Below are positions 2,720 through 5,438 of a stretch of 64,000 nt of DNA, piece after piece (the stretch's first letter is position 1; every line of letters starts with the position of its first letter). Both the position numbers and the translations under genes were made by a program. The notes below the pieces were generated by a model. That model did no database searches. It had not been told where the DNA came from and worked only from the letters and a program-made list of their open reading frames with translations. This DNA comes from Fimbriiglobus ruber (GTDB lineage Bacteria > Planctomycetota > Planctomycetia > Gemmatales > Gemmataceae). The stretch spans positions 481,460 to 545,459 of the forward strand of contig NZ_NIDE01000020.1 in NCBI RefSeq assembly GCF_002197845.1, in the 5' to 3' direction.

Positions 2720-2809
2720 GAAATTCTCTTCCTGTTGCGGACCCGCCGGGCGCGTGTAAGATTTACACTTCTCGTTCTCACGTCCGGCGCCCCAGCTGGA
2801 AGCCGACCG

Positions 2810-4132
2810 ATGTCACAAACCGCCCAGGACGGGCCGAACGCCGGGCTCTTCGATACCGAGACGTTCGCCGGGTTCGGGGCGAGCCGCTTTCGGCCGACGG
2901 GGGAAATCCCGACCGGCCGTCTCGTCCGCGCGAAAAGCCAGGCCAAGCTGAAGCACGGCGTCCGCACCCACGCGCCGCGACTGCCGGGCGTTTACTCGAT
3001 GCTCGACGCCAAGGGCCGCGTGATTTACGTCGGGAAAGCCAAAAACCTCCGCGCCCGTTTGCTGAGCTACTTCCGCACAAAGAGCCGCGACCCGAAAGCG
3101 GGCAAGATTCTCGGCAACACCCGCGTCCTCGTCTGGGAGCAGACGGCCGACGAGTTTTCTGCCTTGCTGCGGGAACTCGAACTGATCCGTCGGTTCCGCC
3201 CGCGGTTCAACGTGATCGGGCAACCCGGCCAACGGCGGTACGTCTACTTCTGCCTCGGTCGGCAACCCGCACCTTACGCCTACATCACCCCCTCGCCGAC
3301 CGGCAAGGAAATTGCCTGCTACGGCCCGCTCAAGGGCCGCGCGTATCTGGAAGACGCGGTCCGCCGCGTAAACGACTGGTTCAAGCTGCGCGACTGCCCC
3401 GCGACGGTCGCGATGGTCTTTGCCGACCAGCCCGAGTTATTCCCGGCCGAACGCGCACCGAAGTGCCTGCGATTCGAGATCGCGACGTGCGCGGGGCCGT
3501 GTGCGGGGCTTTGCGGGCGGCGCGAGTACGCCGCGGGCGTCCGCGCGGCCAAGGCGTTCCTCGACGGCCGCGACCGCACCGTTTTAAAAGAACTGAAGCG
3601 GCGGATGACGGCCGCGGCCGCCGATCTGCAATACGAGCGTGCGACTACTCTCCGCGACCGCCTGCAGTCCCTCACCCGCCTCGACGACCGTCTCACGTTC
3701 CTGCGAACCGCCCGGACCGGCGGTTCGTTCGTCTACCCGCTCATCGGTCCGGACGGCACGACGGTGTGGTACCTCATCCACCACGGCGAGGTTAGTGGCG
3801 CCCTCCGAGAGCCGCGGGACGCGACCGAGCATTTAGCGGCGCGGACCATGATGGATAAAGTTTTTTCCCAGCCGCCCCCCGGGGAAGGCATCACGGACCG
3901 GACGGTGGATAGTGTGTTGCTCGTGTTCGCCTGGTTCCGGAAGTACGCCGATGAGAAAGCCCGGCTGATGACCAAAGACGTGGCGTTGGCACTCTGTCCG
4001 ACGAACGAAGCGATAGAGACAACCGGTTCCAGGAAGTCGTCGTCGGGAGGGCGTCTTGGGGCTCTGCCCCAAACCCCGCCGGAGGGGTCGAACCCCTCCG
4101 GACCTCCCTTTTGCTCCCGACCCGTGGAATGA
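2810..4132 (+). CDS. UvrC-like GIY-YIG nuclease, short form, repeat-derived C-terminus
   Basis: The protein matches the N-terminal half of excinuclease subunit UvrC. A GIY-YIG domain starts near residue 60 (GVYSMLD ... VIYVGKAKNLRARLLSYF). A Cys-rich segment (TCAGPCAGLCGRREY) and a UVR-type helical pair follow. The C-terminal RNase H-like nuclease and HhH domains of real UvrC (about 600 residues) are missing. The final ~25 residues are encoded inside the composite repeat at 4054-4400, so the native C-terminus has probably been replaced. I chose the ATG at 2810, with GGAAG upstream, over a TTG 75 bp earlier. A role in incision 3' of DNA damage is only inferred. Confidence 0.8.
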   Translation: MSQTAQDGPNAGLFDTETFAGFGASRFRPTGEIPTGRLVRAKSQAKLKHGVRTHAPRLPGVYSMLDAKGRVIYVGKAKNLRARLLSYFRTKSRDPKAGKILGNTRVLVWEQTADEFSALLRELELIRRFRPRFNVIGQPGQRRYVYFCLGRQPAPYAYITPSPTGKEIACYGPLKGRAYLEDAVRRVNDWFKLRDCPATVAMVFADQPELFPAERAPKCLRFEIATCAGPCAGLCGRREYAAGVRAAKAFLDGRDRTVLKELKRRMTAAAADLQYERATTLRDRLQSLTRLDDRLTFLRTARTGGSFVYPLIGPDGTTVWYLIHHGEVSGALREPRDATEHLAARTMMDKVFSQPPPGEGITDRTVDSVLLVFAWFRKYADEKARLMTKDVALALCPTNEAIETTGSRKSSSGGRLGALPQTPPEGSNPSGPPFCSRPVE

Positions 4133-4400
4133 TCCCAAAGCGGATCATTCCACGGGTCGCTCGCGGTGGCACAGGTTGATTTCGGCTGGAAGGCATCGGT
4201 TATACACTCGGTTCCAGATACTGACAGTTAGCGGGATTCGTCGAGACGACCAACCCGTCTCTTCCTGCCTGGACAACAAACGATTCCCGCGAGCGGTCAG
4301 TGGGTCGATCCGCTTTGGGATCGACCCACTGACCGGGAGCAGATGGGGAGGTCCGGAGGGGTTCAACCCCTCCGGCGGGGTTTGGGGCAGAGCCCCAAGA
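4054..4400. repeat. Composite MITE-like element with 55-bp terminal inverted repeats (family B)
   Basis: Positions 4054-4108 and 4346-4400 are inverted repeats of 55 bp with one mismatch. They begin TCTTGGGGCTCTGCCCC and contain GGAGGGG...CCCCTCC. Each arm is followed inward by its own hairpin: 4119-4135 with 4142-4158, and 4295-4311 with 4318-4334. The centres of the two hairpins are reverse complements of each other. The core of about 136 bp has no gene. The whole looks like a non-autonomous mobile element. It overlaps the 3' end of the UvrC-like gene. Confidence 0.8.
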
Positions 4401-4529
4401 CTTCACCCCATAAAAATCCCCCAGGTGACCAGGTGACCAAGCACTGGTTCGGTCCTTGCCTCCGCCCCGGCACCTGTTACGATGCCGCGTGACGGTCTAC
4501 CCTTTCCCAACTCCGCGAGATGAAATCCG

Positions 4530-5438
4530 ATGCGCTTCCGCTACACTCCCAGCTTCCTTTGCCTGATCGCGCTGGTCGCGTGTCCCCGCGCGGTCGCGGA
4601 CGAACCGGCGATCACCCACTCCTTCCTCGCCACCGGCGGTCAGACCTATATCCACAATGGCGACGGCACGACCTCCTGGACCTATCCGCATAGCACGCGC
4701 GATGGCTGGGTACTTCCGAATGGTAACGTCCTGCTCGCGCTCTCCAAGAGCCAGAAGTATCCGGGCGGGGCCGCCGTGGAGGTGACCAAGGACGGCAAGA
4801 TCGTGTTCGAATTCAAGGGCACGCAGTCCGAGGTTAACACTGTCCAGGCTGTCGACGGGGACAAGATCCTGCTCACCGAGGCCGGCCTCAAGCCTCGGCT
4901 GTTGGAAGTCAACCGCAAGGGCGAAATCGTGGTCGACGTGCCGCTAACCGCACAGACCAAGGACCAGCACCTGCAGACGCGCATGGCCCGCAAGCTGGCC
5001 AACGGCAATTACCTCGTCCCTCAACTGCTCGACCGGGTGGTTCGCGAGTACACGCCCGCCGGCAAGATCGTGTGGGAGGCCAAGACGCCGCACATGCCGT
5101 TCACCGCGATCCGGCTCGAAAACGGCAACACGCTGATCGGTTGCACCTGGGGTAACTTCGTCATCGAAGTCGACAAGGACGGCAAAACCGTCTGGCAGGT
5201 GACGAACGACGACCTGCCTGGCAAGCCGATTAACGACGCCTGCGGCGTCCAACGACTACCCAACGGAAACACCGTCATCACCAGCCAGCACGCTGGCGGG
5301 AACGACGTGAAACTGACCGAAGTGACCCGGGACAAGAAGATCGTCTGGACCTACCGCGATCCCAAGACACCTAGCATTCACCACTTCCAAATTCTGGACA
5401 CGAACGGGAAAGCCCTGGAAGGGCCGCCGTTGAAGTAA
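4530..5438 (+). CDS. Secreted PQQ-like beta-propeller protein
   Basis: The 302-residue protein begins with a Sec signal peptide (CLIALVACPRAVADEP) and is probably exported to the periplasm or surface. It is made of repeated blades with the pattern LPNGN / ANGNYL / ENGNTLIG / LPNGNTVIT. Each is followed by a turn and a D/KDGKIVW-type strand, typical of PQQ-like or arylsulfotransferase-like propellers. No catalytic residues are recognisable and the ligand is unknown. The ATG start is chosen because it gives the intact signal peptide. It lies alone between two palindromic elements. Confidence 0.75.
   Translation: MRFRYTPSFLCLIALVACPRAVADEPAITHSFLATGGQTYIHNGDGTTSWTYPHSTRDGWVLPNGNVLLALSKSQKYPGGAAVEVTKDGKIVFEFKGTQSEVNTVQAVDGDKILLTEAGLKPRLLEVNRKGEIVVDVPLTAQTKDQHLQTRMARKLANGNYLVPQLLDRVVREYTPAGKIVWEAKTPHMPFTAIRLENGNTLIGCTWGNFVIEVDKDGKTVWQVTNDDLPGKPINDACGVQRLPNGNTVITSQHAGGNDVKLTEVTRDKKIVWTYRDPKTPSIHHFQILDTNGKALEGPPLK

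What the first reader, a model, noticed from the sequence alone, without database searches (positions are those of the whole stretch)
4020..4402. Composite inverted-repeat element supplies the C-terminus of a UvrC-like protein
The 55-bp terminal repeats and two internal hairpins form a 347-bp element whose left arm overlaps the last ~25 codons of the gene. The coding frame passes through the arm and stops inside it, so insertion probably replaced the native C-terminus.
Basis: partly seen in the sequence, partly recalled or inferred. Interest (0 to 1): 0.5.

Follow-up and report, generated by a model that had tools for sequence, protein, structure and literature searches.

The report
Mobile nested palindrome extending a repair-like protein
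A planctomycete-like genome carries about three dozen copies of a mobile DNA piece made almost entirely of nested palindromes, and one copy landed at the end of a UvrC-like gene so that the protein now runs on into the mobile DNA.

Summary
The inverted-repeat element is real: 56-nt arms at 4053-4108 and 4346-4401 (98% complementary) plus two 18-bp hairpins, folding into a four-way junction (z about -22). It belongs to a mobile family: 38 matching regions fetched from the held genome, 34 with both arms; none found in 94 other genomes of the family. Conserved ends ("Y" and "X") lie outside the arms, so the window copy spans about 3982-4448. Of 11 copies with a recognisable Y terminus, 7 show 8-12-bp target duplications starting there (6 of 340 mismatched controls). 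Stems covary with almost no wobble pairs, and the inner part is inverted relative to the ends in 7 of 25 classifiable copies. This points to DNA-level palindrome correction (template switching or inverted-repeat recombination) rather than RNA selection. The UvrC-like protein has 66 residues from a conserved tryptophan to its end, against 18-51 (median 29) in 21 orthologues, none with the element. The tail is an extension past a variable terminus, not loss of a conserved one, and the stop lies in the first hairpin, not in the arm. No transposase sharing the ends was found. The kind is known (MITE/REP/RPE-like); anatomy and gene-facing polarity (22 of 23 scored) are unusual.

The parts
2735..4132 (+). 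UvrC-like gene (GIY-YIG + UVR motif, 465 aa by the longest ORF), reading into the element
3982..4052 (.). Y end of the element (old, diverged): 24 of 31 bases ungapped match to the Y consensus over 3982-4012, at the expected distance from the arm (71 vs 70 nt)
   Evidence: 0 of 5000 shuffles and 1 of 1309 other window stretches reach the score; outer limit uncertain by about 10 bp because orthologues also have a similar ALxxC peptide here
4053..4108 (.). left arm, itself two hairpins (TTGGGGC-TCT-GCCCCAA and CCGGAGGGG-..-CCCCTCCGG)
4118..4159 (.). first internal hairpin (18-bp stem, CAAAGC loop); holds the stop codon of the extended protein
4130..4132 (+). TGA stop codon of the extended UvrC-like protein
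4160..4293 (.). central region, variable in length and sequence among copies; its edges (GCTCGCGG / CCGCGAGC) close the third branch of the junction
4294..4335 (.). second internal hairpin (18-bp stem, GCTTTG loop)
4346..4401 (.). right arm
4402..4448 (.). X end of the element, facing the start of the next gene (ORF 4530-5438 +)

Best explanation
A non-autonomous, MITE-like transposable element that has so far been found only in this genome. Its body is a hierarchy of palindromes (56-bp arms that pair with each other, a short GCTCCC/GGGAGC stem, then a junction with two 18-bp hairpins and a central branch) between two different outer ends, X and Y. It was inserted by a transposase acting in trans, with duplication of about 8-12 bp of target (shown for the better-preserved copies; the enzyme is inferred and not identified). 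Inside the genome the palindromes are kept perfect and the inner part is flipped by replication template switching or recombination between inverted repeats (inferred from covariation without wobble intermediates and from inversions). The window copy went in at the 3' end of a UvrC-like gene, Y end first; the native stop was lost and the frame now runs through the Y end and the arm to a stop in the first hairpin, adding a tail that is probably neutral (inferred).
For: Family: 119 BLAST pieces in the own genome; 38 regions fetched, 34 with both arms; arm pattern 69 times in this genome, 0 in 94 other family genomes including 2 of the same genus. Transposition: at the Y terminus a repeat of score >=8 is found in 7 of 11 copies against 6 of 340 mismatched pairings; >=10 in 5 of 11 against 0 of 340. 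Structure: 97.6% of 3303 cells paired, 36 pairs with changes on both sides against 20.7 in shuffles, 228 double-changed cells against 60.9. No wobble: in the two hairpins 1007 of 1017 cells are Watson-Crick, 1 G-T, 4 A-C, 5 other; in the outer arms G-T 17 against A-C 15, i.e. symmetric between strands. Inversion: 18 copies one way, 7 the other, 6 unclassifiable, of 31. Orthologues: W-to-end 18-51, median 29, n=21, against 66.
Against: No empty site could be compared: the nearest genomes are about 60% identical in protein. 4 of 11 copies with a recognisable Y terminus show no convincing duplication (L046, L048, L056, L066; scores 6, 6, 6, 4) and 20 of 31 copies have no recognisable Y terminus. 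The X terminus is not sharply defined; the stretch between duplication and X core varies in length, unlike a classical transposon end. No autonomous partner with the Y end was found. The window copy itself has no recognisable target duplication.
Confidence: 0.72

Rival explanations
1. REP/BIME-type repeats mobilised by a Y1 (RAYT/TIRYT) transposase: each arm is a pair of REP hairpins and the element a head-to-head dimer.
For: Genome has 3 Y1_Tnp genes; arms are palindromic; the tetramer before TTGGGGC is CGTC in 28 of 62 arms, like the CGTC-REP tag of PMC3733652 (abstract, passages and section 15 read).
Against: None of the three Y1 genes is flanked by the element; only chance-level matches in BLAST of four copies. 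The tag is not CGTC in 34 of 62 arms. Target duplications are not expected of Y1 transposition (recalled). Unit length, unlike X/Y ends and the four-way junction do not fit a 20-40-bp REP.
Confidence: 0.12
2. A structured regulatory RNA (attenuator or 5'-leader element) kept by selection and spread as such.
For: Very strong fold, covariation, X end facing a gene start in 22 of 23 scored sides.
Against: G-U pairs practically absent in the hairpins and no strand asymmetry; inner part occurs in both orientations, which would put the reverse complement in the transcript; no Rfam match above gathering score (6 weak hits, all below).
Confidence: 0.08
3. The tail similarity at 3982-4012 is chance: the insertion lies further right, only the arm and what follows is element-derived, and residues up to about 439 are native.
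For: Orthologues have an A-L-x-x-C like peptide at this place; 1 of 1309 other window stretches scores as high.
Against: Match is at the expected spacing from the arm; W-to-arm distance (40 residues) exceeds the W-to-end length of 20 of 21 orthologues.
Confidence: 0.25

Closest known systems
Bacterial MITEs (NEMIS/Correia, ERIC, RUP; review PMC2229807, abstract and part 1 of the motifs section read)
   Same: short, non-autonomous, terminal inverted repeats, tens of copies, mostly intergenic, occasional in-frame fusion to ORFs
   Different: 350-bp unit of nested palindromes with a four-way junction; two unlike outer ends outside the inverted repeat; no known partner transposase; target duplication about 8-12 bp rather than TA (RUP, ERIC)
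Rickettsia palindromic elements (RPE)
   Same: palindromic element read in frame as part of a protein
   Different: RPE sit inside many ORFs; here only 1 of 31 analysed copies has a coding frame running into the arm, and it forms a C-terminus
REP / REP dimers, GTAG and CGTC families (PMC3733652)
   Same: intergenic palindromes, dimers, some insertions in uvr and other repair genes, CGTC before part of the arms
   Different: much larger unit, target duplications, placed at co-directional and divergent sites and never convergent (21, 7, 0; 3 of 31 unclassified), whereas REPs prefer 3' and convergent sites
Template-switch homogenised inverted repeats (PMC8604942, PMC8794818; outlines with abstracts read)
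   Same: arm homogenisation and spacer inversion, multibase compensatory change
   Different: those are single loci or RNA genes; here it acts at three nested levels over a mobile family (inference)

Membership tests
MITE (non-autonomous DNA transposon) | multiple dispersed copies with terminal inverted repeats | tested here: met
   34 of 38 regions with both arms
MITE (non-autonomous DNA transposon) | target-site duplication | tested here: met
   7 of 11 copies with a recognisable Y terminus, against 6 of 340 controls; not testable in the other 20 of 31
MITE (non-autonomous DNA transposon) | ends shared with an autonomous element carrying a transposase | tested here: not met
   22 places match the Y end in the own genome, 20 in known copies of the family and 2 weak short ones; genome 97% complete. 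So it is called MITE-like, not a MITE of a named IS family
REP/RAYT system | Y1 transposase gene flanked by the repeat | tested here: not met
   3 Y1_Tnp genes, none flanked by the element
CGTC-REP | CGTC tag, 8-9-bp stem, 4-5-nt loop | tested here: not met
   CGTC in 28 of 62 arms; stem 7 bp with 3-nt loop by reading
Known RNA family (Rfam) | match above gathering score | tested here: not met
   6 weak matches, none reaches its gathering score
RPE-like protein-coding palindromes | recurrent in-frame insertion in ORFs | tested here: not met
   1 of 31 copies
UvrC-like (GIY-YIG) protein | GIY-YIG domain and UVR motif | tested here: met
   a second, separate UvrC-like gene lies at C7:363238

The most novel reading that the evidence does not exclude
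A mobile element whose recognised form is the extruded four-way junction itself: because structure rather than sequence is the substrate, stems may change freely as long as both strands change together, the inner parts can flip, and genes can ride inside (two copies have about 0.9 kb between the arms, with 152- and 162-aa ORFs). It lands with fixed polarity, X end towards a gene start.
Probability: 0.2. Interest if true: 0.65.

Novelty: new variant of a known kind. Interest (0 to 1): 0.4.

Why it matters
It gives a clean natural data set (31 aligned copies in one genome) in which structure-preserving double changes can be separated from RNA selection by the lack of wobble pairs, so it bears on how perfect palindromes are kept in bacteria. 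It also shows how a mobile element can add a tail to a repair-type protein in one step. As a protein innovation on its own the finding is modest: one case, a variable terminus, no sign of function.

Tried and rejected
A pattern scan of genome contigs gave nothing, but records near the own genome may be left out there. DNA search of 95 family genomes found the element only in the own genome; only up to 7 candidates per genome were scored, so the exact arm pattern was run as a second test (same answer). A first target-duplication search without anchoring was inconclusive (31 copies plus the duplicate L067: scores barely above shuffled pairings), and the anchored test replaced it; the anchoring motif was chosen after seeing the flanks. 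First C-terminus comparison had minus-strand loci in the wrong orientation and was discarded. Pfam gave nothing for the two cargo ORFs; family-wide searches found a relative of one at 71% identity and three weaker ones and none of the other. Rows dropped before counts: L067 (1692 of 1693 positions identical to L066), L069 and L074 (long cargo), L071, L073, L075, L076 (one arm each), leaving 31 of 38; 6 of 31 without X/Y assignment; L023 (gene cut at contig end) from the orthologue counts. The X-side count (22 of 23) leaves out 2 weak sides (L057, L062) and those 6 copies, and the score threshold of about 28 was set after seeing the list. The convergent-site count is weak: baseline in the window 21 co-directional, 5 divergent, 4 convergent gaps.

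Full report
What is there. The window lies in a 12.36-Mb genome (G000:C20:481460-545459). At 4053-4108 and 4346-4401 are two 56-nt arms, 98% complementary, with hairpins at 4118-4159 and 4294-4335. As RNA or DNA the stretch folds into one long stem that opens to a four-way junction: first hairpin, central branch, second hairpin.

A family. The own genome holds many copies (119 BLAST pieces). I fetched 38 regions; 34 have both arms, of which two have about 0.9 kb between the arms. After leaving out one duplicate (L067), those two long ones and four one-armed regions, 31 copies were aligned. The exact arm pattern occurs 69 times in this genome (34 forward, 35 reverse) and not once in the 94 other family genomes searched, two of them of the same genus; a DNA search agreed.

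True limits. Sequence outside the arms is conserved too: an X end (..CCGGTGCCTGGTCATGTGGACGGTTTTTGTGGGGTGAC) and a Y end (GAGGGGCTTGCCCTCTGTCCAGCGATCGAAG..GGGAGGGC). In the window copy X is on the right, about 4402-4448, and Y on the left. The Y match at 3982-4012 has 24 of 31 identical bases at the expected distance from the arm; 0 of 5000 shuffles and 1 of 1309 other window stretches score as high.

Transposition. In copies with a recognisable Y terminus the next bases recur upstream of the X end: score 8 or more in 7 of 11, against 6 of 340 mismatched pairings; 10 or more in 5 of 11 against 0 of 340. Lengths are 8-12 bp. Four of the 11 (L046, L048, L056, L066) show nothing convincing by this score. 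An earlier unanchored search did not separate well from its control. The X side of the duplication is not at a constant distance from the X core, which I cannot explain.

How the palindromes are kept. Across 31 copies 97.6% of 3303 cells pair; 36 of 107 pairs have two-sided changes (20.7 in shuffles), and slid versions pair in 34-55% of cells. Copies are related, so these counts are not independent events. In the two hairpins 1007 of 1017 cells are Watson-Crick, 1 is G-T, 4 are A-C and 5 others; in the outer arms 17 are G-T and 15 A-C. RNA selection should leave G-U pairs on one strand; symmetric and rare mismatches suggest repair of one DNA arm from the other. The inner part lies in one orientation relative to X/Y in 18 copies and in the other in 7 (6 unclassifiable); in L066 the loop of one hairpin is reversed. 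Arm homogenisation with spacer inversion is what template switching does (PMC8604942, abstract), and template switching can make and maintain hairpins (PMC8794818, abstract). That it acts here is inference.

Where copies sit. By codon usage, the X end faces the start of a gene in 22 of 23 scored sides (two weak sides and six unclassified copies left out). Pfam supports the called frame in 7 of 10 X-side fragments tested. Counting by hand, sites are 21 co-directional, 7 divergent and 0 convergent, 3 of 31 unclassified; gaps in the window are 21, 5 and 4. Only the window copy of 31 has its coding frame running into the arm.

The protein. The gene encodes a GIY-YIG plus UVR-motif protein; matches to it were found in 39 of 41 genomes searched, the weaker ones being the separate UvrC. 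In 21 complete orthologues the distance from the conserved W to the end is 18-51 residues (median 29); here it is 66, and no orthologue has the arm-encoded peptide. The element thus extended a variable tail. The stop TGA 4130-4132 is in the first hairpin. Between 26 codons (from the arm) and about 50 codons (from 3982) are element-derived; the lower number is certain.

Enzyme. Searching the Y end in the own genome gives 22 places: 20 in known copies, 2 weak. Three Y1 transposase genes exist, none flanked by the element. The transposase is unknown.

Literature. Searches for MITEs with planctomycetes, palindromic elements with C-terminal extension, quasipalindromes and Fimbriiglobus listed no description of this element; only the open-access library was searched. 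In-frame fusions of MITEs and REPs, also in uvr genes, are known (PMC2229807, PMC3733652; sections read).

Noticed in passing
L074:709-1634 and L069:714-1636: Copies with about 0.9 kb between the arms and cargo: a 162-aa ORF (71% identical relative in G012) and, in AT-richer DNA, a 152-aa ORF with no relative in the family genomes.
   Followed up: partly
L050:657-846: Three extra tandem units of about 45 bp, each the first arm hairpin joined to the X end, in front of a complete element.
   Followed up: no
L064:705-1154: The centre of this copy holds a further, unrelated palindrome (GGGGGCACGTTTCCAACGTGCCC).
   Followed up: no
L090 and L091: Two of the three Y1 transposase genes of the genome are surrounded by other families of palindromic repeats (e.g. 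ACCGGTGGTGTCGCTGCGCTCAACCACCGG).
   Followed up: no
L066 and L067: A 1.69-kb stretch with the element is present twice (1692 of 1693 identical) on contigs C17 and C3; real duplication or assembly overlap.
   Followed up: partly
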